Notes under the pieces: generated by a model
What the model saw: the letters and a program-made list of their open reading frames with translations, nothing else
Told to the model about the DNA's origin: nothing
The model's database searches: none
Part shown: piece after piece, positions 9,815-23,746 of the stretch
Numbering within the stretch: position 1 is the stretch's first letter
Layout: each line of letters starts with the position of its first letter
Assembly (NCBI GenBank): GCA_017307505.1
Contig: JAFKEE010000055.1
Location: 1-64,000 of the forward strand
Direction of reading: 5' to 3'
Source of the DNA: Acidobacteriota bacterium
GTDB taxonomy: Bacteria; Acidobacteriota; Terriglobia; Bryobacterales; Bryobacteraceae
Length of the DNA stretch: 64,000 nucleotides
Translations under genes and position numbers: made by a program

Positions 9815-10648
9815 ATGAGTGCGGCGAAATCGGCTGCCAGTGCGCGGCGTCGGGCGAAGAAGTCCTATCTGTTCGAGAAGGTGGTTGACAGCTGGGAGGA
9901 CTTCCTCCAACTGGTGTCGGCTGATCCGTTCCGGCACTGGGCTTTCCGGGGCCAGCGGGATGCCAACTGGCAGGTCTGGTCCACCGTAAGCCGCGAGTTG
10001 CGAAGCCGGCGCGTGGCCTCGCGCTACTGGACTTCGCAGGAACACCGGCTGGTCTGGATCTTCCAGAGGAAGGCCAGCGGCTTCCTCGAGAATCTCCCCG
10101 CGGTGGCCGATACTCCGCACTGGATGGCGCTGATGCAGCACCACGGCGCACCGACGCGGCTGGTGGATTTCACGTGGTCGCCCTATGTTGCGGCGTTCTT
10201 CGCGCTGGAATCGAGCGTTGATGATGCGGCCGTGTGGGCGATCAATGCTCCGCAGTTGGGCACGTTCGCCTATGGGCCGGAGTACGCGACGGCGCAACGC
10301 CCGCCCAGCCCGCAGGATGTCCTGAACAGCATTGGTGTCCGGGGGAAGGATGCGGTCGCGATCGGCGAACCCTATTTCAAGAATCGCCGTGTCATTGCCC
10401 AGTCCGGCACGTTCGCCTTCCCGTGGGATATCGAGCGTCCCATTGACGAGATTCTGGCCAGCCAGGAGGGCGTGATCGCGAAATTCGTTCTGCGCGGCAG
10501 GGCTTTGCGCAAACGCGCGCTGGGCGAACTCTACCGGATGAACATCACGAATGCCACGCTGTTCCCAGACCTGGATGGCCTGGCGCGGTCACTTGCGTTC
10601 GAGTTGGAGTACCACTACGCTTACGATCCCACAGAGGGGGAAGCTTAG
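9815..10648 (+). CDS. FRG-domain protein
   Basis: This 277-residue protein carries an FRG domain: FRGQ at residues 44-47, the hallmark QHHGAPTRLVDFT at 108-120, then WSPYVAAFFAL. The N-terminal 20 residues are basic. The C-terminal part (about 150-277) has the family's usual run through FAFPWDIERPID and a final FPDLDGLARSL. FRG proteins are soluble and widely distributed in accessory DNA; their biochemical activity is not established to my knowledge. ATG 9815 is preferred over the earlier start at 9764 because AAGGAGG (9802-9808) lies 6 bases before it. Its stop codon overlaps that of the convergent GH79 gene. Confidence 0.85.
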   Translation: MSAAKSAASARRRAKKSYLFEKVVDSWEDFLQLVSADPFRHWAFRGQRDANWQVWSTVSRELRSRRVASRYWTSQEHRLVWIFQRKASGFLENLPAVADTPHWMALMQHHGAPTRLVDFTWSPYVAAFFALESSVDDAAVWAINAPQLGTFAYGPEYATAQRPPSPQDVLNSIGVRGKDAVAIGEPYFKNRRVIAQSGTFAFPWDIERPIDEILASQEGVIAKFVLRGRALRKRALGELYRMNITNATLFPDLDGLARSLAFELEYHYAYDPTEGEA

Positions 10649-12255
10649 CGGCAGCTCGGATTCGCGGCATTCGGGAACGCCAGGAACGTGATGCTCGCCG
10701 GAGCCAGACGGATCCTGCCGGCCGGGGCCGGTTGGCCTGTCATCTCGGGCAGGGCATCGCCACTGCCGAGTTTGAGCTCCTGTCCGTTGAGATTGACTGT
10801 AGTGCCAATCAGATCCGCCGCTGAGAGTTCATAGCGGCTGGATGGCATCGGCGACAGCAGTTCGAACGCGGCGGCACGGTCTGCATTGATAGCCAGCATC
10901 GCCACTCCGCCCGGCTGGCCTCGGAGACAGTGGCTATAGAGATGGACATCGGGCGAAGGCGATTTGCCGGCTTCGAGGACGGTGGTGCCCATGAGCTTGC
11001 GCCAGGCCAGGGCGCCCCAGTAGCTGGGCCGCGGAGTCATGGTGTCCTCGTCGATGAGTGCGTAGTCGCTGGCTGCGAGAGTATTGTGGGCTACCACCTG
11101 GACTCCGCGTTTGGCGAGGGTTCCCAACTGGTTCAGATAGCGGAAGGTATCGAGGAAGCTCGCGGCCCAGGGATTGCCGCCGCAGGCGGTCTCACCGGTT
11201 TCCGTGAGCCAGAGCGGTTTGCCGGGCTCGAAGACATCGCGCAGATTGGCATAGAAGACGGCCTCTCGATCCGCGCGGGACAACCACTCCTGTGAGAGCG
11301 CCGCTTCCGGGCTCGTCTGGGGCGCACCTTTCATCCCGCCGCATCTTCTCGAGACGCCGCCGTAGAAGTGATAGGAGAAGCCATCGACACCGCGGCCGGT
11401 GGCCTGAAGAATGTCCTTCGTGCTGAGGCCGGAGAAACCGGTAGCCGCGAGCGCTCCTTCTCCCACCGAACCGGGTCCCAGGATGAGCATGTCCGGCAGC
11501 GCCTCCCGGGCGAACGCTTTGAAGACAGCGAAGTCGCGGCCATAGGCCGCCGCGTCGTAGCCCTTCGGAGCTCCGCCCATGGCGGCGAAATTGGGCTCGT
11601 TGAACAGCTCGGCTGCGGCGATGACGCCCCCCGAGGCTTTGGTGAAGGCGGCGAGTCTGCGTGCCTGCTCAGAGGTCCACACTCCGTGGTTGTCGCGCAC
11701 GCCATCGCTGACGGCGAACGAGGTGATGAGCCGGGCATCTGTGGCGCGGGCGAAATCTATTACTCCTCGCCATTGCTGACGGGTGAGAACGCCGCCAAAG
11801 CCCGCGGGCGGCGTGGCCGGGGCAGGGGAGTCTGCGTCATGGAAGTAGGTGGAATTGGCCCAGGTGCCGCTGACCCGGACGTAGGACGGGCCGAGCGCCG
11901 CCGCCAGCTTCCGCAACCTGGGGGTGGATAGGTCGAGAGGCTGCCGCATGCGGAACGCATTGGGGTCGAGTCCGGGGACTGAAGGCGCTGCCGCGGCTGA
12001 TTCCGCCGGCGCACTGGTGGGTTTGCGGTAGGGCGCCCAGAAGCGTCCTCCGGTCACCTCCACCATCTCCACATTGAAGGACTGGAAGCGTTCGTCGACT
12101 GACCCTATGCGCTGCATCTTCGCGGGAGCGATGGCGATTGGATCCGCTGCTGGTAAGGGCAACGTTGAAATCACCAGCGCCCAAAAAGCCCATTTCGCGT
12201 GCCGCCAAATGGTGCCGCGTGCAACATCTACTGCGCTATGCACAATTTCCTCCAA
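10645..12255 (-). CDS. Secreted GH79-like glycosidase (heparanase / beta-glucuronidase type)
   Basis: The 536-residue protein has a Sec leader ending near residue 36 (ALVISTLPLPAA) and a TIM-barrel glycoside hydrolase. The acid/base candidate is Glu220 in ELFNEPNF. The nucleophile candidate is Glu355 in TETGETACGG. The following stretch (VVAHNTLAASDYALID, then PRPSYWGALAWRKLMG) mirrors heparanase-type enzymes, including the C-terminal beta-sandwich. GH79 members remove glucuronic acid or 4-O-methyl-glucuronic acid from glycans. The exact substrate is not visible. It is the last gene of a three-gene minus-strand unit (GH3, carboxylesterase, GH79), 22 bases after the esterase, so it is likely controlled from the element at 16255-16281. 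Confidence 0.82.
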   Translation of the reverse strand: MEEIVHSAVDVARGTIWRHAKWAFWALVISTLPLPAADPIAIAPAKMQRIGSVDERFQSFNVEMVEVTGGRFWAPYRKPTSAPAESAAAAPSVPGLDPNAFRMRQPLDLSTPRLRKLAAALGPSYVRVSGTWANSTYFHDADSPAPATPPAGFGGVLTRQQWRGVIDFARATDARLITSFAVSDGVRDNHGVWTSEQARRLAAFTKASGGVIAAAELFNEPNFAAMGGAPKGYDAAAYGRDFAVFKAFAREALPDMLILGPGSVGEGALAATGFSGLSTKDILQATGRGVDGFSYHFYGGVSRRCGGMKGAPQTSPEAALSQEWLSRADREAVFYANLRDVFEPGKPLWLTETGETACGGNPWAASFLDTFRYLNQLGTLAKRGVQVVAHNTLAASDYALIDEDTMTPRPSYWGALAWRKLMGTTVLEAGKSPSPDVHLYSHCLRGQPGGVAMLAINADRAAAFELLSPMPSSRYELSAADLIGTTVNLNGQELKLGSGDALPEMTGQPAPAGRIRLAPASITFLAFPNAANPSCR

Positions 12256-12277: not shown

Positions 12278-13837
12278 TTACTTCTTTTGCTGGGAGAGAC
12301 GCTCGATCAAATCGAGACGGGTCTTCAGAGGATCCGGTTTAGCCATCGGACCACCGATGGCGAAGTCCATCAACTGATCCGAATCCGGCTTGTAGGCGGG
12401 CCATTCCGGGAGTCCGGCACCATTGGGGTTACCTGTCTTGGCGAAGTTCACCCAATAGGTATTCGCCGCGCGAGCGATGGCCTGATCGGCGGGCGTCAGG
12501 TCCTTGCCGTAGCGGGCAGCGACGGTGTCGAACACAAAGGGGATTTCGGTGGCGTGCGGGGCGCCGCGCTTCCATTGGTTGCGCATCGACTCCGCCACAT
12601 AGGAGAAGCGGAATTCATAGGCCTTCTGGCCCGTCTGAACCAGCGACCGGACGGTGTAACGGGCGGGTTCTACCATCATCTGGTCGGCCGCCATCGAGAC
12701 GCCGACTTCCATCACTTTGCCCGTGCCATCCGGATCGTAGGCCGCTTTGGCCTTGGCACTGTCCGCGCCGAAGGGAGCGAAGAGGGCTTCCATGGTGCGC
12801 CCGCGAGGGAAGCCGATATCGGCACTGTTGGCGCCGGCCATGATGGGGATCTTCGCACCCCGGCCGCCCTCGTAGGCCGCGCCGGGCGACTCGACCACCA
12901 CTTTACCGTCGATCATGGGTCCCGCATAGGTAGGTGTGCCCATGGAGGCCATGTTCAGGCCCGCGACGATAGCATCGGCGGGGAGTTTCCGCAGTGCGGC
13001 CAGCGCGGCTGCGTCGCTGCCCTCAATGCCCGCGCTCTTGGCAAAGGCGAGGCCGACCGATTCGCCGGAGGGCATGCCGGTGGGTCCCTGGCGATCGACA
13101 TAGCGATCCCCCATCAGGGAGGAGCGGCCACCGCCGGATTCGATGACGGCCTTGTGAATCAGGCCCGCGGCGAGCGGCGACGTCATCATGGTGAGAACGG
13201 AGCCGCCTCCGGCCGACTCGCCGAAGAGAGTGACGTTGCCGGGATCACCACCGAAGGCGGCGGCGTTCCGGCGGACCCACTTCAGTGCGGCGATCTGGTC
13301 CATGTAGCCGTAGTTGCCCAGCGGCTCGTTGGGATTCTCCTTGCTCAACGCGGGGTGCGCAAAGAAGCCGAACCGGCCCAGGCGGTAGTTGAAGCTGATG
13401 AAGACCACCCCCTGCTTTGCGAATTGGGAGCCGTCGTAGACAGCAGGGGAACTGCCGCCATTCACAAACCCGCCGCCGTAGATCCAGACCATGACGGGCA
13501 TCTTCTTTGCAGCCGGTTTCTCGGGCCGCCACACATTCACGTACAAGCAGTCTTCGGCGGGCGTGACGCCTAACGGCGCAGCGTCCCCCGGGAAAGGCTT
13601 CTGCATGCAGTCGGCGCCGTACTCCACGGCGGGCCGGACTCCCGTCCAGCTCCTGGCCGGTTGGGGCGCACGCCAACGGAGATCGCCGACCGGCGGCGCG
13701 GCAAAGGGAATGCCCTTGAAGGAGGCGACGCCGTCTTTGACCGCACCTTTCAGCCGGCCTGTGTCGACCTTGACTTCGTCGGACGCGGCGAATGCGGCCG
13801 TCGAGGCCAGCAGAGAAATAACAAGCAGTGAACGCAT
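12278..13837 (-). CDS. Secreted type-B carboxylesterase
   Basis: The 519-residue alpha/beta hydrolase has a clear signal peptide (MRSLLVISLLASTAAFAA). Conserved landmarks of the COesterase family follow: GIPFAAPPVGDLRW, EDCLYVNVWRP, oxyanion loop YGGGFVNGG, and the nucleophile elbow GESAGG with Ser208. Family members hydrolyse carboxylic esters, including phenolic, para-nitrobenzyl or acyl-sugar esters. The specificity is unknown. It lies 38 bases after the GH3 gene and 22 bases before GH79 on the same strand. Together the three would remove glycosyl and acyl groups from an extracellular substrate. Confidence 0.9.
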   Translation of the reverse strand: MRSLLVISLLASTAAFAASDEVKVDTGRLKGAVKDGVASFKGIPFAAPPVGDLRWRAPQPARSWTGVRPAVEYGADCMQKPFPGDAAPLGVTPAEDCLYVNVWRPEKPAAKKMPVMVWIYGGGFVNGGSSPAVYDGSQFAKQGVVFISFNYRLGRFGFFAHPALSKENPNEPLGNYGYMDQIAALKWVRRNAAAFGGDPGNVTLFGESAGGGSVLTMMTSPLAAGLIHKAVIESGGGRSSLMGDRYVDRQGPTGMPSGESVGLAFAKSAGIEGSDAAALAALRKLPADAIVAGLNMASMGTPTYAGPMIDGKVVVESPGAAYEGGRGAKIPIMAGANSADIGFPRGRTMEALFAPFGADSAKAKAAYDPDGTGKVMEVGVSMAADQMMVEPARYTVRSLVQTGQKAYEFRFSYVAESMRNQWKRGAPHATEIPFVFDTVAARYGKDLTPADQAIARAANTYWVNFAKTGNPNGAGLPEWPAYKPDSDQLMDFAIGGPMAKPDPLKTRLDLIERLSQQKK

Positions 13838-13875: not shown

Positions 13876-16155
13876 CTACGGCTGAATCGTGAACTCGGTG
13901 TGCAAGGTGGCGGAGGCGTCCTGACCCACCCAGACGTCGAAGCTTTCGGCGTCCAGCACCCAGCCTTTGGAAGCGGAGTTCCAGTAGCTGAGTTCGGATT
14001 TGCCGAGCGAAAAGCGGACGGTCTTCTTCTCGCCCGGTTTCAGGGAGACCTTTTCAAAGCCCTTCAGTTCACGCACGGGCCGCGAAGCGCCGCCGGCGCG
14101 CTGGTGGATGTAGAGCTGAACCACTTCCGTGCCTGCCCGCGAGCCCGTGTTCTCGACGTCCGCGGAGACTTCCACCGGCGAGCCGGACTTCACCTGGGCG
14201 CTGGCGAGCTTCAGGTTGGACACGGTGAAGTTCGTATAGCTTAAGCCGTGGCCGAACGGATAGAGAGGAGCGCCGGTCTGGTCCCAGTAGCGGGAGGAGA
14301 AGCCCCGGCTGCCTTCGGGCTGGTGAGTCAGGTTGTGGGCATAGTAGATGGGAATCTGGCCGACATTGCGCGGCCAGGTGATGGGCAGTTTGCCGCTGGG
14401 ATTGGCGTCGCCGAAGAGCAGATCGGCAATGCCGTTGCCACCTTCGTTGCCGGGATGCCAGGCTTCCAGGATGGCCGGGATGTGCGTCGATGCCCAGGTG
14501 AGGTTCAGCGGGCGGCCATTGATCAGGACCAGTGCCACGGGTTTCCCGGTGGCGGCAATGGCCTGCATGAGTTCCTGCTGCCGGCCGGGCAGGTCGAGCG
14601 AGGCCTGCGAGGCGAGTTCGCCGCTCATCAGCGCGGCTTCTCCCATGACGAGGACGACCATGTCTGAACGCTTCGCCAGCTCGACCGCTTTGGTGAACTC
14701 CTGCTGCGACTGCGCCTCCGTCCAGGGTTCCACTTTCTTCATGCCGAGGAGGTCCTCGAACATGGAGCGGTACTGTTTGGCGATCTGCACACCCTCGGCG
14801 TGCTCCACGCGTGCGCCGGATCCCAGTTTGTTGCGGATGCCCTGGAGCACCGTCACCGTGGTGCTGGTATCCACGTCGAACCCGCTCCACATGGTCAGCA
14901 TGTCGCGCCTGGCGTCGGCCAAAGGACCGATGACGGCGATGGACTTTCCGGCATCCTTGGCCAGCGGGAGCAGGCCGCCCTCGTTTCGCAACAGGACCGC
15001 GGTGCGCTGCGCGGCCTCTCGCGCAAGCGGCAAATACTCCGGCGCGCCGATGACCGACTTCGATCTTGCCTCGTCGACGTAGGGATGTTCGAACAGGCCG
15101 AGTTGGTATTTCGCCGCCAGGATGGGCCGCACCGCGTTCTCGATTTGAGCTTCGGAGATCCTGCCTGCCTTCACCAGCGCGAGCAGGTTCTCGTTGTAGG
15201 TCCCGCTGGCCATGTCCATGTCGACGCCGGCGGTGAACGCGCGGAAGGCTGCGTCTTTGCGGTCGCGGGCGAAGCCATGCGTCACGAGGTCGCCGATGGA
15301 GTTGGCGTCGCTTACGACGAAGCCCTGGAACTTCCAGGTCTTTCGCAGCACGTCCTGCAGCAGGAACGAGTTGCCGGTGGCCGGAACATCGTTGAGATCC
15401 ATGTAGGCGCTCATGAAGGTGGAGACACCGGCGTCGAGGGCCGCGCGGAAGGGCGGGAAGTAGACGTTCCAGAGCTCGGAATCGGAGATGTAGGACGAAT
15501 CATAGTCACGGCCGCCATCGGCAGCGCCGTAGCCGGCGAAGTGCTTGGCACAGGCCAGGATGTGCTCGGGGCTGCTGAGGTCGTTCCCCTGGAAGCCGCG
15601 AACCTGGGCCCGGGCGACCATGGCTCCGAGGACCGGGTCCTCGCCGGCGCCTTCAATCATGCGACCCCAGCGGGGATCGCGAGCGATATCCAGCATGGGC
15701 GCAAAGGTCCAGGTGATGCCCGCGGCGCGCGCTTCTTTGGCTGCCACGCCGTGGACCCGTTCAATCAGTGCTCCATCCCACGAAGCGGCCAAGGCCAGGG
15801 GCATCGGGAATACGGTCTTAAAGCCGTGAATGACGTCGAGGCCGAAGATGAGCGGGATGCGGAGGCGGGTCTCCTCCATGGCCACCTTTTGCAGCCGGTT
15901 GATATCCGCTGGTTTCGAGATCCAGAGGATCGACCCGGCCTGTCCCTTGCGGATTGCGTCCTCGGGCTTGGGGGAGCCGGGAATGAAGGCAACACCGCCG
16001 ATCTGGGCGAGTTGGCCGATTTTCTCCTCCAGCGTCATCCGGCCGAGGAGTGCATTCGCCTTGGCCGTGAAATTGGCCGTGCCGGCGGGTTGCGCCTGCG
16101 CCGTGCCGGCCAGGCACGCTGCCGTGAGGGCGATTCCTGCGATGAGGTACTTCAT
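13876..16155 (-). CDS. bglX: Periplasmic beta-glucosidase, GH3 (BglX-like)
   Basis: The 759-residue enzyme matches BglX length and architecture. It has a signal peptide (MKYLIAGIALTAACLAGTAQA), the GH3 N-terminal barrel with GLDVIHGFKTVFP, and the nucleophile Asp283 in FVVSDANS (family SDH/SDx position). The GH3 C-terminal sandwich and a C-terminal fibronectin-III-like domain (VENTGSRAGTEVVQLYI) follow. It hydrolyses terminal beta-glucosides or related residues. ATG 16155 is chosen over an upstream in-frame codon because it begins the signal peptide and has a GGAG 8 bases ahead. It leads the GH3-esterase-GH79 unit, and the LysR-type element at 16255-16281 lies 99 bases upstream. Confidence 0.93.
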   Translation of the reverse strand: MKYLIAGIALTAACLAGTAQAQPAGTANFTAKANALLGRMTLEEKIGQLAQIGGVAFIPGSPKPEDAIRKGQAGSILWISKPADINRLQKVAMEETRLRIPLIFGLDVIHGFKTVFPMPLALAASWDGALIERVHGVAAKEARAAGITWTFAPMLDIARDPRWGRMIEGAGEDPVLGAMVARAQVRGFQGNDLSSPEHILACAKHFAGYGAADGGRDYDSSYISDSELWNVYFPPFRAALDAGVSTFMSAYMDLNDVPATGNSFLLQDVLRKTWKFQGFVVSDANSIGDLVTHGFARDRKDAAFRAFTAGVDMDMASGTYNENLLALVKAGRISEAQIENAVRPILAAKYQLGLFEHPYVDEARSKSVIGAPEYLPLAREAAQRTAVLLRNEGGLLPLAKDAGKSIAVIGPLADARRDMLTMWSGFDVDTSTTVTVLQGIRNKLGSGARVEHAEGVQIAKQYRSMFEDLLGMKKVEPWTEAQSQQEFTKAVELAKRSDMVVLVMGEAALMSGELASQASLDLPGRQQELMQAIAATGKPVALVLINGRPLNLTWASTHIPAILEAWHPGNEGGNGIADLLFGDANPSGKLPITWPRNVGQIPIYYAHNLTHQPEGSRGFSSRYWDQTGAPLYPFGHGLSYTNFTVSNLKLASAQVKSGSPVEVSADVENTGSRAGTEVVQLYIHQRAGGASRPVRELKGFEKVSLKPGEKKTVRFSLGKSELSYWNSASKGWVLDAESFDVWVGQDASATLHTEFTIQP

Positions 16156-16254
16156 AGAACTGCTCCAGATCAAGGTTGAGCCGGCTGTGCCGGCGGTGGG
16201 GCCGGGCTGCGCCCGCATGCGCGTTCCGATAATACTCTCCGGCGGTTAGTCCGG

Positions 16255-16281
16255 CAATTGAATCAATCGAATAATAGTAAT
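16255..16281 (-). promoter_or_regulatory. LysR-type regulon element, copy 3 (before bglX unit)
   Basis: Read on the minus strand this is ATTACT-N15-CAATTG, with the 3' part ATTCAATTG. It shares 20 of 27 positions with copies at 20652-20678 and 21645-21671, with exactly the same spacing. It contains ATT-N11-ATT, which satisfies the LysR T-N11-A rule. It points toward the GH3 gene on the same strand, and the surrounding DNA (16255-16300) is strikingly AT-rich, as expected of a promoter region. Confidence 0.75.
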
Positions 16282-16318
16282 AATCTGCGCGGAATAATCC
16301 CCCGAAGCCGGCGGCGAT

Positions 16319-17617
16319 TCACAGGGGAAAGACTCCTAACGCGACACAGGCAATCGTCATCAAAACCGACGCGCCCAAGAGTAGCGGCGCCGTGAAGCGC
16401 TGGTGCTCCGCCAGATCCACTTCGGCCAGGCCGACGATGAGGAACGTGGCCGGCGTGAGTGGGCTGACGGGGAATCCGGTGGTCATCTGCCCCAATAGGG
16501 CGGCCTGGGCGACATGGACCGGAGCCACGCCCAGCATCCTGCCGGCATCGGCGATGACAGGCATCACCCCGAAGTAGAACGAATCCGGATCGAAGAGCAG
16601 GCTCAAGGGCATGGAAAGGATGCCGAGTACCGCCGGGATATGCCGGGCCATCCCGGGCGTGACCAGCCCGACCGAGACCTTCGCCATTGCCGAGAGCATG
16701 CCCGATTCCTTCAGAATGCCCGTGAACACGCCCGCCGCGAACAGAATCCCGGCCATCATGAAAGCGGTTTTCGCGTGTGCTTCCACGCGGGAGCGTTGGG
16801 CTTCGATGCCCGGGTAGTTCAGCACCAGGGCAAGCGAGGCTCCAAGCATGAAGACCACGACAGGCGGCAGCGCGCCGCTAATCATGGTTCCGATCAGGCT
16901 GAGGGTCAGGCCCGCGTTGAGCCAGACTTTTCCGGGTCTGCGAAGCGCCTGTTCCTCCACGGAGAGTTCGCGGCGGAGGACGATGACAGAGGCGACGGTC
17001 GAGTCGATGCGCAGGCGGCGCTCTTCCCGGACTCCCAGGATCCAGGCGACCACGAAGACATAGAGGAGGCCGATGGCCTGGACGGGGATCAGTGGATTGA
17101 AGAGATCCGTGACCGGAACCTGCAGGGCCGCCGAGGCGCGCAAGGTGGGTCCGGTCCAGGGCAGGAAGTTGACTCCGGCGGCCAACGAGGCCGCGCAGGC
17201 GAGAATCCGCAGGTCGATGCCGACTCGTTTGTAGAGAGGAAGCATGACGGGGATCGTGACGAGGAACGTCACGGCGCCGGAGCCATCCAGGTGCACCAGC
17301 AGGGCGAGCAATGCCGTGCCCGGGACGATCAGAGACGGCCTGCTCCCAACCGTCTGCAGGATGCGGTCGATGACCGGATCGATCATTCCGGCGTCCGTCA
17401 TGATGCCGAAATAGAGAATCGCGAACAGGAACATACCGGCGACAGGCGCAACGTTCTGGATGCCCTTCAGGATGAAGGGGCCGGTCTGCAGGCCAAATCC
17501 GTTCAGCAGCGCCGCGGCCACCGGGACAAGAATCAATGCCACCAGGGGCGACATGCGCCTGCTGATAATGAGCGCGAGCAGAACGAGGATGGTGAGCAGA
17601 CCGGACAAGGCAAGCAT
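16319..17617 (-). CDS. CitMHS-family organic-acid (citrate-type) transporter
   Basis: This 432-residue inner-membrane protein is almost entirely hydrophobic with about 12 predicted helices. It begins [17 protein letters not shown] and contains the family-typical [14 protein letters not shown] and [15 protein letters not shown] segments, then [13 protein letters not shown]. CitMHS members import metal-complexed citrate or related di/tricarboxylates using protons. Its ATG overlaps the CoA-transferase stop (TGATG, one shared base), so the two are translationally coupled. In this operon it would bring in the acid that the CoA-transferase activates. The actual acid is unknown. Confidence 0.85.
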
Positions 17618-18870
17618 CAGGGATGTGCTTCCGGCGCGCCGTCCGGGCTCGCTGAATAAATAATGTGGTCGGCGGCGAGGGCCTCGATTTCGCCTTGAGA
17701 CAATTCGAGAACGTCAGCCAGGACCGCGGCGCTGTGCTCTCCCAAGCCCGGCGCGGGCTCGCTTACCCGCGCCGGAGTTGCCGACAGCTTGACGGGCGGG
17801 CCGGTTACCCGTTGAGCGCCCGCCTTCGGGCAATCCACAACGGGAAACATGCCGCGCAGGGCCGCCTGCGGATCCTGAGACACCTCCAGAAAATTGCGGA
17901 CGGGCGAGCAGGGGATTCCTACGGAATGCAGAAGGGAGACCCAGTGGGCCGCATCCTGCTCGCGAAAGATGGCCGCCAGGATTGATTCCAGCGCATGACG
18001 GTTGTCCACCCGGCGCGCGTTCGTGCAGTAGTCGGGATGGCCCTCCAGATCCTGCCGGCCGATGACCTGGCAGAAGGCGGTCCAAAGCTTCGGGCTGCCG
18101 ACCGCAACGGAGAAGGCGCGGTCTTGTGCCTGGAACACACGGTAGGGCACTACTGTTGGGAATCCGCTGCCCAGGGGCACAGGGATCCTTCCCGAGCCCA
18201 GGAACGACATGTAGTTCGAGCTCATGGCCGAGATCATCGAGTCCAGCATGGATACATCGACATACTGGCCGCGGCCTGTCTGTTCCCGCGCCCTCAGGGC
18301 CATGAGTATCCCGATGACCGAGAAGAGCCCGGCGTTGATGTCGGCGACGGCGTAGCCGCTGCGGACCTGCTCGCCGTCTTCGGTGCCGGTGATGCTGAGG
18401 AAGCCGCTGGAACACTCCACGATGAGATCCATGGCGGCTTCGTCGCGAGACGGGCCAGCCTGGCCGTAACCGGAGATGGAGCAATAGACCAATCGGGGGT
18501 TGCGAAGGGCAACAGTCTGGTAACCGAGGCCGAGCCGTTCCATGGTGCCGGGCCGGAAGTTCTCGATCAGGACGTCCATCCTGTCGATCAGCCGGCGGCA
18601 GAGTTCCAGGCCCTTCGGGCGTTTGAGATCGATGGAGATGCCGCGTTTGCCCCGGTTGAGGCCGAAGAAGAAGGACGAGTCGGTGCCGGCGAAGGGTGGA
18701 CCCCAACCACGGCCCATGTCTCCGCCCGATGGGCTCTCCAGTTTGTAGACCTCGGCGCCGAAGTCGGCCAGAAGCAAGGTGCAGTAGGGGCCGGCCAGGG
18801 CGTGGGAAAAATCGAGCACGCGAATGCCCTGCAGGGCGGCGATGGGCGAAGCGGCCGGTTTATCGGGCAT
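17617..18870 (-). CDS. Family III CoA-transferase (CaiB/BaiF)
   Basis: The 417-residue protein shows the family hallmarks: [19 protein letters not shown] at the N-terminus, [37 protein letters not shown], and GYGQAGP followed by the catalytic Asp148 in [11 protein letters not shown]. Such enzymes move CoA between carboxylic acids, for example succinyl-CoA to an incoming acid. It is the third gene of the minus-strand operon, after AtuA and the AtuA-like small protein (20-base gap), and overlaps the transporter gene. The context suggests it activates the imported acid. Confidence 0.92.
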
Positions 18871-18890
18871 GGCTGGGCAGGCGCTCCTGG

Positions 18891-19208
18891 TTACGGGACA
18901 TCGATCTCCATTCGCAGCAGCGCCGCGCTGTATGTCTTTCCTTGCGCATCGGTCCTCAGGGAAACGGTGCCGCCGCCATCCAGAGACTGGTGCAGCAGGA
19001 AGTTTAACGCGTGCAGTTTGGGCAACTCAAAGCGCTCCACTGGTCCATGGCACAACTCCCGGAAATGCTCCTTCACACGGCCGGCTGTGACCTGTTCCAC
19101 GAGCAGCGGGTAGAGCTCCGGCCGCAGCGCGATCAGCCCGATATTGGCGCAGTCGCCCTTGTCGCCTGAGCGGGCGTGGGCCACCTCCAGCAGGCATACT
19201 CTAGGCAT
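18891..19208 (-). CDS. AtuA-like small C-terminal-domain protein
   Basis: This 105-residue protein resembles the stand-alone domain that elsewhere forms the C-terminus of AtuA-type proteins: [19 protein letters not shown] at the N-terminus, then [21 protein letters not shown]. It overlaps the end of the AtuA gene by 8 bases, so the two halves appear to be made as separate, coupled polypeptides of one enzyme. Its own catalytic role is not known. It is soluble, with no signal peptide. Confidence 0.8.
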
Positions 19209-20580
19209 CGACTTCCCTCATGACGACGTTCCAGGAGACTTCGGATTTCGGAATGAGTGCCGGCCAATAGGCGACCACCTCTTCCACCTTGGGCCGGCCG
19301 CCGACATAGGTCACGACGGGCGGTCCGTTGAGGGCCAGAGGAGCGATCTCGCGGGTGAAGCGCTCCACCGCTTTGCGATCGTTGCCGCGCACGCCGACGC
19401 GCAGGGCGACTTCCGGCGTATCGGGGTGGAAGGGGCCGGACAGGGCATCGCCATGGCAGGCGTTGGCTCCAATGTACTCGGCGTGGATGGCGTCGAAGGT
19501 GAGGCCGAGGTGGTTGAGCCTGGCTCGCAGGATCTGCTCCGCCTTGCGTGCCTTTCTGGCTGCGTCGGGCCAGCCGTAGACGAGCAGGCCGATGGCCCGG
19601 AAGCCACTGCTGTAGCTGATGGAGACCTTGTAGAAGTCTGTGGCCGGGCGGCCGCCCACGCCGCTGAGACGAACGCGATCGAGGCCATCCTGTGTGAGAT
19701 CGATAGAGGTGAAGTCGGCAATCACGTCGGGTGTGATGTAGGTGCTGGGGTCGCCGATCTCATAGAGCAGTTGCTCGGTGACGCCCGGGACGTTGACTCT
19801 TCCGCCCGTGCCCTCGTGTTTGGTGATGACGACGTCGCCGGTCCGTCCGATCTCCGCGATGGGGTAGCCGATGTTGTCGAAGTCCGGAATGGACTCCCAG
19901 TCGTACTGGCAGTTACCGCCGGTGGACTGGGTCCCGCACTCGATGGCGTGTCCGGCCACGGTGCCGGCGGCGAGGCGGGTCCAGTCGTCCATGCGCCAGC
20001 CGAACTCGTGGATGGCCGGACCCAGGGTGAGTGCTGCGTCGGCACAACGGCCGGTGATGACGATTTGGGCGCCTTGGTCGAGCGCCTCCGCGACGGGCGC
20101 TGCGCCCAGATACACATTCGCGCTCTGCACCCGGGACCGGATGGCAGAGAGGGGTTCGCCGGTATCCATGTTGGAGAGGGGGACGCCGCGTTCGAGCAGT
20201 TCGTCCAGCCGGGGCAGGATGTCGTCACCGAGAACCACCCCGATTTTGAGGCCCTTGGAGATGCCCGCCCGCTGCAACGCCAAGGCGGTGGCCTCCGCAC
20301 AGGCTATTGGATGGACCCCTCCGGCATTGGCCACCACCTTGATGCCGCGCTCGACGATATCGCAAGCGCCGCGCCCGATCATCTCGACGAAGTCCCGTGC
20401 GTATCCTGCATTCCCGTCCCGCGCGCGCTGCTTCTGGAGGATGGACATCGTGACCTCGGCCAGGTAGTCGAGAGTCAGGTAGTCGATGGGACCCTGCCGC
20501 ATCTGGAGCAGAGGAGCCTCCAGCGAGTCGCCCCAGAAGCCCTGGGCATTGGCCACACGGATTCTGTCCGCACCGGTCAT
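19201..20580 (-). CDS. AtuA-family acyclic-terpene-utilisation-like protein (DUF1446)
   Basis: The roughly 459-residue cytosolic protein begins with the family signature [13 protein letters not shown] and continues with [27 protein letters not shown] and [14 protein letters not shown]. It is the AtuA/DUF1446 core, known from citronellol/geraniol catabolic clusters but also found in other acid-degradation operons. The precise reaction is not established. I use ATG 20580; an in-frame GTG at 20589 is also possible. It is the first gene of the operon AtuA, AtuA-like, CaiB, CitMHS. The regulatory element at 20652-20678 lies 71 bases upstream. Confidence 0.85.
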
Positions 20581-20651
20581 TGCCCGCACCCAGCGTCATG
20601 GCCGCGTCGAAAACGCATAAGCTCCAACATAGTGCGGGCACGGCCTTATAA

Positions 20652-20678
20652 CAATTGAATTATTCCTATCCCAGTAAT
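20652..20678 (-). promoter_or_regulatory. LysR-type regulon element, copy 2 (before AtuA operon)
   Basis: On the minus strand this reads ATTACT-N15-CAATTG with the conserved 3' ATTCAATTG and a central ATT-N11-AAT. It lies between the stop of lysR (20695) and the AtuA start (20580), in the only AT-rich patch there, and points toward AtuA. Spacing and 20 of 27 bases match the other two copies. Confidence 0.78.
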
Positions 20679-20694
20679 CCAGGCTGGTTATGAA

Positions 20695-21627
20695 TCATGC
20701 TGGATCTGTGCGGCGTGGCAGGGACGCCGGCCGCATCGCTTTGCAGACGGCGATCAGGGCTCGCAGAAAGGCCGCGGCCGCGGGCGAGAGGGTCCGGCCC
20801 GACTTCTGGATGGCGACGATGCGCCTTGTCAGTCCGGGCTCCTTCAGGATGCGCGAGCCCAGTCCGCCCAGTTCAGAGGCCTCGAAGGCGGAGGTGGGCA
20901 GAAAGGTGATCCCGAGTCCCGCTTTCACCATGCCGATGGCGGTGGACATGTAGGTCGCCTCATAGGCCGGGACGGGAAAGTGGCCCAGGGACTGGAAGGC
21001 ACGGTCTACCAGGATGCGCACGCTGCTTTGCTGGCTCATGAGGATCATCGGCTCGGCGATGAGTTGCTTGAGTTGGATGGAGCGCCGCCTGGCCAGTGGC
21101 GAGTGTGGCGGGAAGACGACACGCATCTGGTCGTTGAACAGCGGGACCACCTGAACGGCCGGTTCCGCATCGGCGAAGCTGCCGATGCCGAAGTCCACCT
21201 CCTCATTTTTGACCTGCGCCAGCACCACCTGCGCGACGGCATCGCGCAGCGAGACCGTGATGCCCGGTTGCTGCTGGCGGAACTCCGCGATGATTCGCGG
21301 CAGGATGGTGGAGCAGACGGAGGGTAGCCCGGTCACGCTGACTGAACCGCGATCGCCGGTGGCGAGTTCGCGCGCGTTGAGAATCACGGAGTCGATCTCG
21401 CGCAGCAGGCGCTGGATGACGGGAGAAAGCTGCTGGCCGATGCGTGTCAGCTTGACGGACCGGGTATTGCGATCGAGCAGGCGAACCCCAATCGTCTCCT
21501 CCAGTTGGCGGATCTGGACGGTCAAGGCGGGCTGCGAGACGTGCAGAGACTGGGCCGCGCGGGTGAAGTTGCCGGCGGCGGCGATGGCGGCGAACGCCTC
21601 GAAGTGACGGAGGTTGAGGTTCGTCAT
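20695..21627 (-). CDS. LysR-family transcriptional regulator
   Basis: The 310-residue protein has the N-terminal LysR winged helix-turn-helix (residues about 5-65: LRHFEAFAAIAAAGNFTRAA, then SLHVSQPALTVQIRQLEE and LLDRNTRSVKLT). A type-2 periplasmic-binding-like effector domain follows (about 90-295). It is encoded just upstream of, and in the same direction as, the AtuA operon, and divergently from the exported hydrolase at 21704. Three copies of one element with a T-N11-A core flank it, including one 17 bases before its own ATG, so autoregulation and control of the neighbouring units are expected. The inducer is unknown but is probably the acid handled by the operon. Confidence 0.93.
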   Translation of the reverse strand: MTNLNLRHFEAFAAIAAAGNFTRAAQSLHVSQPALTVQIRQLEETIGVRLLDRNTRSVKLTRIGQQLSPVIQRLLREIDSVILNARELATGDRGSVSVTGLPSVCSTILPRIIAEFRQQQPGITVSLRDAVAQVVLAQVKNEEVDFGIGSFADAEPAVQVVPLFNDQMRVVFPPHSPLARRRSIQLKQLIAEPMILMSQQSSVRILVDRAFQSLGHFPVPAYEATYMSTAIGMVKAGLGITFLPTSAFEASELGGLGSRILKEPGLTRRIVAIQKSGRTLSPAAAAFLRALIAVCKAMRPASLPRRTDPA

Positions 21628-21644
21628 GGCAATCAGCCTACATT

Positions 21645-21671
21645 ATTACTGCCATCTGAATTATTCAATTG
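21645..21671 (+). promoter_or_regulatory. LysR-type regulon element, copy 1 (lysR / hydrolase divergent region)
   Basis: ATTACT at 21645-21650 and CAATTG at 21666-21671 are separated by 15 bases, with ATTCAATTG at the 3' end and ATT-N11-AAT inside. It occupies most of the 76-base divergent region, pointing toward the hydrolase start at 21704 and abutting the lysR ATG. This is the usual arrangement for a LysR protein that activates one side and represses itself on the other. Confidence 0.8.
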
Positions 21672-21703
21672 CCTCATCGGCCGTGCTGAGATACTGTGCG
21701 GGG

Positions 21704-23746
21704 ATGGTGCGATTCCTGCATTTCCGGTTCGAGGTCCTGGTTGCTGTCTTTCTGTTGGCTCTGGCTGCGCCGGCGGATGCGAAGATCGTACGCATCACTA
21801 TCGAGGAGCGGGAATCTCCGGCCTATGCGGGCAAGGACTTCGGGGCAGGCCCTTATGAGCGCCTCTCGGGGCACGTCTTCGGCGAGTTGGATCCGTCCGA
21901 TCCAAAGAATGCGATCATCACCGACCTGCAGTTCGCGCCGCGCAATGCGCGGGGCATGGTGGAGTACTCGGCGACTTTCCTGCTGCTCAGACCCATCGAC
22001 GCGGCCAAGGCAAGCGGGGTCCTGATCTACGACGTTCCGAATCGCGGCAGCCGCCTGTTGCTGGGCGCGCTGCAGGGCGGGGAACCCGGAGATGGCTTTC
22101 TCTTCCGCCGCGGGCACGCCATTCTGGCCAGCGGCTGGCAGGGCGACGTTCTGCCCAGGCCGGGTGTCCAGAGCCTGCTTGCGCCGGTGGCGAAGAACCC
22201 CGACGGGTCGAGCATTACCGGTCCGGTGCTGGTTCGCTACAGCGACCTGCCGGCCGGCACGGCGAGTATGCCAGTGACGGGGTTGCTGCCCCGGCGCCCT
22301 TACCTCGCCGCCAGTCTGGACACCTCCAAAGCCCTGCTGACGAAGCGCGCCACGGAAGAAGGCGCGGTGATTCCGGTGGCGCCTTCGGAGTGGGCCTTCG
22401 CGAATTGTGCTGCCCAGCCGTTTCCAGGAGTGCCGGACCCCGGCTTCGTCTGCCTGAAGCAGGGGTTTGAACCCGGCCTGCTCTACGAACTCACCTACAC
22501 GGCGAAAGACCCGCTGGTTCTCGGCACCGGCTTCGCGGCTACTCGCGACACGGTGTCGTTCTTCCGCCGGGAGACTGCCGATGCCGCTGGCACAGCAAAT
22601 CCCATGGCTGGCCGGATCCGGAACGTGGTGTCGCTGGGCATCTCGCAGTCGGGCAATTTCGTGAAGTCGTTTATCCACCTGGGCTTCAACGAGGATGAGC
22701 AGGGCCGGCGGGTCTGGGACGGCGCGGACGACCACATTGCCGCCCGACAGACTCCGATGAACTTCCGGTTCGCGGTGCCGGGCGGGTCGGCTGGAATGTA
22801 CGAGCCGGGCAGCGAGGCGGTGCTGTGGTGGGCCGATGCGCCGGATCCCGTGCGCGGCCGGAAGACGGATGGAATGCTCCATCGCTGCGGGCTGACCGGC
22901 AGTTGCCCGAAGATCTTTGAGACGTTCGGTGCGGCGGAATTCTGGGGCCTGAAGATGTCGCCCGGGCTGGTGGGCACAGCGGCGAAGGCAGACATTCCCC
23001 TGCCGCCCCAGGTACGGCGCTACTATTTCCCGGGGACGACGCACGGCGGGGGGCGTGGCGGGTTGAATGTGCAGATCCCGTCCGGTGCAGGCCGATGCGT
23101 GCTGCCCGAGAATCCCAATCCGCAGTCGGACTCGATGCGCGCTCTGCTTGATGCCCTGGTGGACTGGGTGGCCAAGGATGTGGAGCCTCCGCCCAGCAAA
23201 TACCCAAAGTTGGAGCAGGGACAACTCGTGCGCGCCGAGCACGGTGCCATGGGCTTTCCGGTGATTCCCGGGCGCCCGCTGCCGGACCAGTTGCTCAACA
23301 CGTTCTACGAGTATGACTTCGGCCCGCAGTTCAACTACAACGACCTCTCCGGAGTGATTACGGTTCAACCTCCCGTCAGGAAGCAGATCATTCCGGGGCT
23401 GGTGCCCAAGGTGGATGCGGATGGAAATGAAGTGGGCGGCGTACCGTCGGTGCAGCATCAGGCGCCGCTGGGCACGTACCTGGGCTGGAACGTGACCGCG
23501 AGCGGATTCTACAAAGGACGGGGCTGCGGCTTTGTGGGCGGCTTCATTCCGTTTGCGGCGACTCGGGCTGAGCGATTGGCCTCCGGAGATCCGCGCCCCT
23601 CATTGGAAGAGCGTTATCCCACGCATGAGGCCTTTGTCGAGGCTGTGCGCGCAGCCGCGGCGAGGCTGGTGCGCGACCGCTTCCTGCTTAAGGAGGATGC
23701 GGACCGGCTGATGCGGGAGGCGGCAACGAGCAACGTCCGGCAATGA
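21704..23746 (+). CDS. Exported alpha/beta-hydrolase-domain protein (Abhydrolase_10 type)
   Basis: The 680-residue protein has a Sec leader (RFEVLVAVFLLALAAPADA). A long N-terminal beta-rich segment follows (ITIEERESPAYAGKDFG, then YERLSGHVFGELDP). The hydrolase elbow GISQSG lies in VSLGISQSGNFVKSF, and the end is helical. This layout is that of the alpha/beta hydrolase domain-containing family seen in many soil bacteria, probably carboxylesterases. ATG 21704 is chosen because it begins the signal peptide; the open frame reaches 21614 but crosses the regulatory element. It diverges from lysR and shares its control region, so an ester or lactone linked to the regulon substrate is plausible. 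Confidence 0.8.
   Translation: MVRFLHFRFEVLVAVFLLALAAPADAKIVRITIEERESPAYAGKDFGAGPYERLSGHVFGELDPSDPKNAIITDLQFAPRNARGMVEYSATFLLLRPIDAAKASGVLIYDVPNRGSRLLLGALQGGEPGDGFLFRRGHAILASGWQGDVLPRPGVQSLLAPVAKNPDGSSITGPVLVRYSDLPAGTASMPVTGLLPRRPYLAASLDTSKALLTKRATEEGAVIPVAPSEWAFANCAAQPFPGVPDPGFVCLKQGFEPGLLYELTYTAKDPLVLGTGFAATRDTVSFFRRETADAAGTANPMAGRIRNVVSLGISQSGNFVKSFIHLGFNEDEQGRRVWDGADDHIAARQTPMNFRFAVPGGSAGMYEPGSEAVLWWADAPDPVRGRKTDGMLHRCGLTGSCPKIFETFGAAEFWGLKMSPGLVGTAAKADIPLPPQVRRYYFPGTTHGGGRGGLNVQIPSGAGRCVLPENPNPQSDSMRALLDALVDWVAKDVEPPPSKYPKLEQGQLVRAEHGAMGFPVIPGRPLPDQLLNTFYEYDFGPQFNYNDLSGVITVQPPVRKQIIPGLVPKVDADGNEVGGVPSVQHQAPLGTYLGWNVTASGFYKGRGCGFVGGFIPFAATRAERLASGDPRPSLEERYPTHEAFVEAVRAAAARLVRDRFLLKEDADRLMREAATSNVRQ

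What the first reader, a model, noticed from the sequence alone, without database searches (positions are those of the whole stretch)
16255..21671. Three-copy 27-bp element defines an undescribed LysR regulon
ATTACT-N12-ATTCAATTG occurs at 16255-16281, 20652-20678 and 21645-21671 with identical spacing and 20 of 27 identical positions. Each copy points toward a different structural unit (GH3-esterase-GH79; AtuA-AtuA'-CaiB-CitMHS; exported hydrolase), contains T-N11-A, and one abuts the lysR start. Three independent matches of 15 contiguous-class bases in a GC-rich genome are very unlikely by chance.
Basis: partly seen in the sequence, partly recalled or inferred. Interest (0 to 1): 0.85.

Follow-up and report, generated by a model that had tools for sequence, protein, structure and literature searches.

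The report
LysR operator shared by three promoters
A 27-base DNA switch found only three times in this 9.4-million-base genome sits in front of three neighbouring gene groups for breaking down plant-type sugars and esters, and the same switch accompanies related copies of the nearby LysR regulator gene even in a very different group of bacteria, so it is very probably that regulator's docking site.

Summary
In the 9.39-Mb genome no other copy exists at 0 or 1 mismatch (0.0009 exact copies expected). A sister species keeps all three in synteny. The decisive test leaves the window out: LysR relatives of 40-46% identity, in two distant families of the phylum and 14 Acetobacteraceae, carry the same two blocks in the same register beside lysR. 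A model from those 16 sites reports only sites 3 and 2 in the window's genome and only the three sites in the sister. The target genes are linked with AtuA elsewhere and lack the element where this LysR is missing. New anatomy: the element's last TTG opens a predicted -35, with TANNNT 17 nt further on in 3 of 3 sites, and a T-N11-A kept in 22 of 22 aligned sites then centres at -65, where LysR-type recognition sites usually lie. It reaches 12 bp upstream of the reported element. Binding is inferred; activation or repression is untested. A new regulon of a known kind.

The parts
16255..16281 (-). Element copy 1 (ATTACTATTATTCGATTGATTCAATTG), between citMHS stop and GH3 start, pointing at GH3-esterase-GH79
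   Evidence: 26/27 kept in G145; weakest of the three in the held-out PWM (21.2; next window hit 14.6); not reported by model R1 in G000
20652..20678 (-). Element copy 2 (ATTACTGGGATAGGAATAATTCAATTG), between lysR stop and atuA start
   Evidence: held-out model E 0.032 genome-wide
21645..21671 (+). Element copy 3 (ATTACTGCCATCTGAATTATTCAATTG), between lysR start and hydrolase start
   Evidence: held-out model's best match of the genome, E 0.0015
16281..16293 (-). T-N11-A of site 1, predicted centre -65 (candidate LTTR recognition site)
   Evidence: aligned T-N11-A in 22 of 22 sites; role inferred
20678..20690 (-). T-N11-A of site 2, predicted centre -65
   Evidence: role inferred
21633..21645 (+). 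T-N11-A of site 3, predicted centre -65
   Evidence: role inferred
16252..16257 (-). Predicted -35 of the GH3 operon (TTGCCG); its first three bases are the end of the element
   Evidence: 17-nt spacing to TATTAT; inferred
16229..16234 (-). Predicted -10 of the GH3 operon (TATTAT)
   Evidence: offset 20 after element, identical in G145; inferred
20649..20654 (-). Predicted -35 of the atuA operon (TTGTTA)
   Evidence: inferred
20626..20631 (-). Predicted -10 of the atuA operon (TATGTT; TATGGT in G145)
   Evidence: offset 20; inferred
21669..21674 (+). Predicted -35 of the hydrolase gene (TTGCCT)
   Evidence: inferred
21692..21697 (+). Predicted -10 of the hydrolase gene (TACTGT), 6 nt before its ATG, so a leaderless mRNA is predicted
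   Evidence: offset 20; identical in G145; inferred
21640..21668 (-). Possible core promoter of lysR inside element 3: TTGAAT-N17-TAATGT
   Evidence: TTG-N20-TA in 15 of 18 lysR-adjacent sites, but also in 2 of 4 sites not adjacent to lysR; inferred
20695..21627 (-). lysR, LysR-type regulator, 310 aa, the presumed binder
   Evidence: PF00126 + PF03466; P0001
19201..20580 (-). atuA (PF07287)
18891..19208 (-). atuA' (AtuA ferredoxin-like domain, PF23544)
   Evidence: queried 18897-19208; stop codon read
17617..18870 (-). CaiB-type CoA-transferase (PF02515)
   Evidence: none of 7 NCBIfam families reaches its cut-off
16319..17617 (-). CitMHS carboxylate transporter
   Evidence: PF03600, TIGR00784 above cut-off
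13876..16155 (-). GH3 glycosidase (BglX-like)
12278..13837 (-). carboxylesterase (PF00135)
10645..12255 (-). GH79-like protein (true start perhaps the GTG at 12243)
   Evidence: PF03662 22.8 bits, just under the 23.1 cut-off; start read
21704..23746 (+). alpha/beta hydrolase (PF20091), probably exported
   Evidence: hydrophobic N-terminus, export inferred

Best explanation
The 27-bp element is the core of the operator of the adjacent LysR-type regulator, and its three copies make one small regulon: GH3-esterase-GH79, AtuA-AtuA'-CaiB-CitMHS, and the PF20091 hydrolase, plus probably lysR itself. Anatomy: with the predicted promoters, a T-N11-A lies centred at -65 (a recognition site), its final A being the first base of ATNACT, and the TCAATTG block runs into the -35 (an activation site), the layout usual for LysR-type activators. 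A LysR tetramer would hold both parts and touch RNA polymerase. CAATTG is palindromic: read the other way it starts TTGAAT-N17-TAATGT, a possible lysR promoter inside element 3, so the bound protein could block its own gene. Likely logic: an organic acid released by the secreted glycosidases and esterases and imported by CitMHS is the co-inducer that makes LysR activate the three units. Shown: sequence, uniqueness, conservation, co-occurrence with LysR, held-out recovery. Inferred: binding, promoter positions, activation, autorepression, inducer.
For: Only 3 copies at <=1 mismatch in the own genome and in G145, where they are syntenic. Element 78 of 81 bases kept, intergenic flanks 222 of 272, one-sided Fisher p 3.5e-4. 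LysR relatives: 14 of 14 Acetobacteraceae loci have the element in the same register, its ATNACT end 11 nt from the lysR ATG; G167 and G413 have it too: 18 of 19 LysR genes counted (for the exception). Model R1 from the 16 outside sites, E<=10: own genome 2 matches = sites 3 and 2; G145 3 = its three sites; G100, G127 none. Held-out PWM ranks the three sites 1-3 in the window. G167: one element between lysR and thiolase-CoA transferase-CitMHS-AtuA-AtuA'-PF20091 hydrolase. L068: a gene separates lysR from tctC-atuA and each side has an element. Homologous units in LysR-less G047 and G100 have none. TANNNT at offset 20 in 3 of 3 window sites (background 0.0022 per position), in the 3 G145 sites and in G413. 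T-N11-A at -11/+1 in 22 of 22 sites. LTTR layout: passages of PMC8407307.
Against: No binding or expression data. G123 has a 42%-identical LysR (HTH 69%) with no element upstream. Site 1 was not reported for G000 by R1 at E<=10 (only 150 of 1117 first-look candidates scored). Single Acetobacteraceae sites are uneven: 9 of 14 beat all 500 shuffles, L075 is matched by 98 of 500. TANNNT at offset 20 is absent from G167 and from 15 of 15 Acetobacteraceae sites, so the target promoter rests on the window, G145 and G413. In the 14 Acetobacteraceae and G167 the T of the T-N11-A is part of the lysR start codon, so its invariance there is not independent. G413 has a different divergent gene, an adenylate kinase. 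Chance look-alikes at <=1 mismatch occur in other genomes of the phylum (49 of 396 have a match, three of them with this LysR).
Confidence: 0.86

Rival explanations
1. The element is the operator of a different, unseen regulator of the AtuA pathway, and lysR is merely one of its targets.
For: Binding is unproven; two of three copies are not at the lysR start; G123 keeps a LysR relative without the element.
Against: The relatives were found by LysR alone and 16 of 17 outside the genus carry the element next to lysR; the AtuA unit of G047, without the LysR, lacks it; in G413 the element is next to lysR although no homologue of the other nine window proteins was found on that 11.5-kb contig.
Confidence: 0.08
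2. LysR binds the element but chiefly represses the three units, the co-inducer relieving the block.
For: The element overlaps the predicted -35 boxes, which is also what a repressor needs.
Against: The predicted -35 boxes are poor (TTGCCG, TTGTTA, TTGCCT; consensus TTGACA recalled), as at promoters that need an activator; a T-N11-A centred at -65 with a second block at the -35 is the layout described for LysR-type activators.
Confidence: 0.25
3. The three copies are recent duplications of one promoter stretch and carry no regulator-specific information.
For: Same register in three neighbouring gaps; in L068 a gap does seem to have been copied.
Against: Flanks look unrelated and the N12 spacers differ at 7 positions while the two blocks agree; the blocks recur in Acetobacteraceae and change less than flanks in G145.
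Confidence: 0.03
4. Chance similarity or a generic LTTR box found at many LysR-type genes.
For: AT-rich words may be commoner in intergenic DNA than composition suggests; T-N11-A is generic (44% of window 27-mers).
Against: Only three copies at <=1 mismatch in a genome with 29 first-look candidates for this LysR; of 12 Acetobacteraceae genomes scanned with R1 at E<=1, 10 show one match and 2 show two, one extra being the second L068 site (at most 150 candidates a genome were scored).
Confidence: 0.02

Closest known systems
Classical divergent LTTR regulons (general description in PMC8407307, passages seen)
   Same: Regulator gene divergent from a target; T-N11-A centred, by prediction, at -65; second block at the -35; autoregulation expected; small catabolic regulon.
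   Different: Operator sequence; three separate units, with glycosidases and esterases among the targets. My searches listed no description of this regulon.
LysR-TctC-AtuA-AtuA' loci of Pseudoroseomonas/Roseomonas and relatives (L064-L077)
   Same: LysR (40-46%), AtuA and AtuA', element in the same register next to lysR. L069 also has a CaiB-type CoA-transferase and a lipase-like hydrolase nearby.
   Different: TctC beside lysR instead of CitMHS; one R1 match in 10 of 12 genomes scanned. Only some genes of L065, L069 and L068 were annotated with Pfam.
acyclic terpene utilisation (atu) cluster of Pseudomonas (recalled)
   Same: AtuA family protein.
   Different: The Pfam families of the window's operon show no carboxylase or other atu enzyme; CitMHS, CaiB and the hydrolases are not part of the atu cluster as I recall it.
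DUF1446 gene beside methylaspartate ammonia-lyase and an LTTR gene in enterobacteria (PMC4682846, passages seen)
   Same: A DUF1446 gene (the older name of the AtuA family, recalled) in a cluster with a putative LTTR gene; C5-dicarboxylate context.
   Different: The figure legend seen names no CaiB, CitMHS or glycosidase and calls the DUF1446 protein of unknown function.

Membership tests
LysR-type transcriptional regulator (protein) | N-terminal HTH_1 and C-terminal LysR_substrate domains | tested here: met
   PF00126 and PF03466 above cut-off
Described LTTR subfamily (NCBIfam models such as CynR, GltC, AlsR) | Score above the curated cut-off | tested here: not met
   Best CynR 171.5 bits, cut-off 277; none of the 25 shown of 55 families reaches its cut-off, 30 were not shown
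LTTR regulon | Target divergent from lysR with a shared intergenic operator | tested here: met
   Element 3 between lysR and the hydrolase gene; element between lysR and a divergent operon in G167 and between lysR and tctC in 13 of 14 Acetobacteraceae, L068 having a gene in between
LTTR regulon | Operator recurs at the predicted targets and not elsewhere | tested here: met
   but R1 did not report site 1 in G000
LTTR regulon | Conserved T-N11-A near -65 | tested here: met
   Aligned T-N11-A at element positions -11/+1 in 22 of 22 sites, centred at -65 by the predicted promoters; in 15 lysR-adjacent sites the T is part of the start codon, so only the window, G145 and G413 sites are independent of that
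LTTR regulon | Dyad symmetry of the recognition site | tested here: inconclusive
   TCAT-N11-ATGA in most of the Acetobacteraceae, partial only in the window sites
LTTR regulon | Regulator binds the operator and responds to a co-inducer | not testable with these tools
   needs protein and DNA
atu (citronellol) catabolism | AtuA together with the atu carboxylase and other atu enzymes | not tested
   Only Pfam content of the window genes was read

The most novel reading that the evidence does not exclude
One box is a two-way promoter switch: its CAATTG palindrome supplies the start of the -35 of both the target promoter and the oppositely directed lysR promoter, and the whole lysR core promoter, leaderless in most relatives, lies inside the operator. 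One bound LysR would shut its own gene and open the target, and the box has spread as a movable unit to new operons while being kept with its LysR between the window's phylum and Acetobacteraceae.
Probability: 0.3. Interest if true: 0.6.

Novelty: new member of a known kind. Interest (0 to 1): 0.5.

Why it matters
As far as I recall, few regulators of this bacterial group have a known operator, and AtuA-family proteins have no settled function. A defined operator, regulator and gene set ties glycoside and ester hydrolases to an AtuA-CaiB-CitMHS pathway and makes the inducer, hence perhaps the AtuA substrate, findable by a simple reporter screen. Retention of the operator with a 40-46% identical regulator in distant lineages also gives a clean case of a conserved LTTR-DNA code.

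Tried and rejected
Generic LTTR box: rejected. Duplicated promoter stretch: rejected. The T-N11-A inside the element: dropped as evidence; replaced by the one at -11/+1. The reversed-pattern control (12 matches, 30 for the true pattern, up to 3 mismatches) was not used as a fair control, since the reversed word holds more of the rare TA steps (my reading); I used composition instead. A first register search in the Acetobacteraceae regions missed most sites because of a flank limit in my script; corrected. In one search the G167 AtuA was queried in a wrong frame and gave nothing; in the right frame it is AtuA. G123 look-alikes near a sugar-isomerase-like gene and a TonB-type receptor were left as an unexplained lead. 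Of the 15 loci, L078 (27% identity) was dropped from all counts; its lysR upstream region shows only an 11/15 match. Of the matches, 30 loci of about 3 kb were checked and none has a homologue of the ten window proteins at E<=1e-5; the other look-alikes were not checked. Ten literature searches (two were on LTTR sites in general and on a genus name) listed no paper on this operator or gene set; I saw listings only, save passages of PMC8407307 and PMC4682846.
Full report
OBSERVATION. The pattern ATTACT-N12-ATTCAATTG occurs at 16255-16281 (-), 20652-20678 (-) and 21645-21671 (+) with no mismatch, and nowhere else in the window at up to three. The three copies agree at 20 of 27 positions. Each lies in an intergenic gap: between the CitMHS stop and the GH3 start, between the lysR stop and the atuA start, and between the divergent lysR and hydrolase starts. 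In the own genome (9,385,101 bases) there are 3 exact copies, 0 with one mismatch, 2 with two and 25 with three; base composition predicts 0.0009, 0.05, 1.5 and 26.4 for up to 0, 1, 2 and 3. So three real copies stand on an ordinary background, all within 5.4 kb.

SISTER SPECIES. Of 9 genomes of the genus, 2 have this LysR at E<=1e-40, G000 and G145. G145 keeps the gene order and all three elements (0, 0 and 1 mismatch), with no other copy at one mismatch or less. Elements keep 78 of 81 bases, intergenic flanks 222 of 272 (one-sided Fisher p 3.5e-4); the flanks of sites 2 and 3 are themselves well kept (87 and 90%).

DISTANT RELATIVES. LysR was used alone as a query. In named genomes it found 15 loci; 14 are Acetobacteraceae, 40-46% identical in the alignment, and L078 (27%) was dropped. 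All 14 have AtuA and AtuA' within about 4 kb and a TctC gene on the side facing lysR (in L068 one gene lies between). All 14 have the element's two blocks in the window's register, with the ATNACT end exactly 11 nt before the lysR ATG; 9 to 13 of the 15 fixed bases match; 9 of 14 beat all 500 shuffles, and the weakest (L075) is matched by 98 of 500. In the window's phylum, 3 of 396 sampled genomes have the LysR at E<=1e-55: G000, G167 and G413. Both others carry the element near the lysR start, with one and no mismatch. In the family, 3 of 150 sampled genomes have it at E<=1e-60: G000, G145 and G123; G123 shows no element upstream of its lysR (best 8 of 15). So 18 of 19 LysR genes counted have the element next to the gene. 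The converse is looser: at one mismatch, 49 of 396 phylum genomes hold a match somewhere; 30 such loci, many of low G+C, had no homologue of the window's proteins within their 3 kb.

HELD-OUT TEST. A sequence-only model (R1) was built from those 16 outside sites. In the whole own genome it reports two matches at E<=10: site 3 (0.0015) and site 2 (0.032). In G145 it reports three, its three sites (0.006, 0.25, 2.1). G100 and G127 have none, G047 (2.3) and G123 (0.12) one each. Site 1 was not reported in the own genome; at most 150 first-look candidates a genome were scored (of 1117 in G000). A simple PWM from the same 16 sites ranks the three sites first in the window, 33.4, 31.4 and 21.2, the next being 14.6. 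Of 14 Acetobacteraceae genomes, 12 are held: 10 have one match at E<=1 and two have two (the lysR-side matches are training data). In one of those two, L068, a short-chain dehydrogenase gene lies between lysR and tctC-atuA, and a second element, not in the training set, stands before tctC.

THE GENES BELONG TOGETHER. In G167 one element separates lysR from a single run of thiolase, CoA-transferase, CitMHS (59%), AtuA (40%), AtuA' (42%) and a PF20091 hydrolase (57%): two of the window's units in one run. In G047 a tannase-type esterase, AtuA, AtuA', CaiB and the window's carboxylesterase (74%) form one run: the link between units 1 and 2. G047 and G100 lack this LysR; their homologous units carry no element (best 11 of 15, about 5 kb from the run, in G047; nothing at 11 or above in the two G100 stretches).

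MECHANISM. In all three window sites a TANNNT hexamer (TATTAT, TATGTT, TACTGT) begins exactly 20 nt after the element; the background rate is 0.0022 per position, so the same offset three times among 40 offsets has a chance of roughly 4e-7 (my product; higher if intergenic DNA is richer in TANNNT). The hexamer recurs at that offset in the 3 G145 sites and in G413, but not in G167 or in 15 Acetobacteraceae sites. With a 17-nt spacer the -35 begins at the TTG that ends the element. Counting from there, a T-N11-A present in 22 of 22 aligned sites at element positions -11 and +1 is centred at -65. LTTRs commonly have a T-N11-A recognition site around -65 and an activation site at the -35 (PMC8407307, passages). 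The caveat is that in G167 and the 14 Acetobacteraceae the T belongs to the lysR start codon; the window, G145 and G413 sites are free of that. On the other strand the element reads TTGAAT-N17-TAATGT toward lysR. TTG-N20-TA is found in 15 of 18 lysR-adjacent sites, and in 16 of 18 (14 Acetobacteraceae, G167, G145) an ATG follows the hexamer after exactly 6 nt, a leaderless arrangement; but of 4 sites not adjacent to lysR, 2 also have TTG-N20-TA and the other 2 also have an ATG at that distance, so this geometry is not specific. In the window the triplet at that place is ATT and the first ATG comes 6 nt later. The hydrolase ATG also follows its -10 after 6 nt. I infer that LysR bound here contacts polymerase at the target promoter and may block its own.

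WHAT IT RESPONDS TO is guesswork: glycosidases and esterases, a carboxylate transporter and CoA-transferases suggest an organic acid released from plant glycosides or esters.

NOVELTY. LysR-type regulons are a known kind. No NCBIfam cut-off is reached among the 25 of 55 families shown, and ten literature searches listed no paper on this operator or gene set; only open-licence papers were searchable.

Noticed in passing
window 21628-21640 and L079: Where 14 Acetobacteraceae, G167 and G145 have an ATG 6 nt after the possible lysR -10, the window has ATT; its first ATG is 6 nt further on.
   Followed up: partly
L068:8882-8908 and 9960-9986: A short-chain dehydrogenase gene between lysR and tctC-atuA is flanked by two copies of the element, as if the intergenic stretch had been copied with the insertion.
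   Followed up: partly
L130 about 3427-3459; L131 about 8176: In G123, whose LysR has no element upstream, element-like sites (ATAACT-N12-TTTCAATTG) lie before a sugar-isomerase-like gene and upstream of a TonB-type receptor; perhaps a rewired regulon.
   Followed up: partly
L138 (G000:C23:72325-73638): A second AtuA (58%) elsewhere in the own genome; an AtuA of similar identity in G100 (L148) lies next to a carboxyl transferase gene.
   Followed up: no
L146:6615-12565: G047 combines tannase, AtuA, AtuA', CaiB and carboxylesterase genes in one run, hinting at plant-ester breakdown as the AtuA context.
   Followed up: partly
window 23770-26232: GH127 beta-L-arabinofuranosidase-like protein with a weak PKD match next to the regulon; no element match near it.
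   Followed up: no
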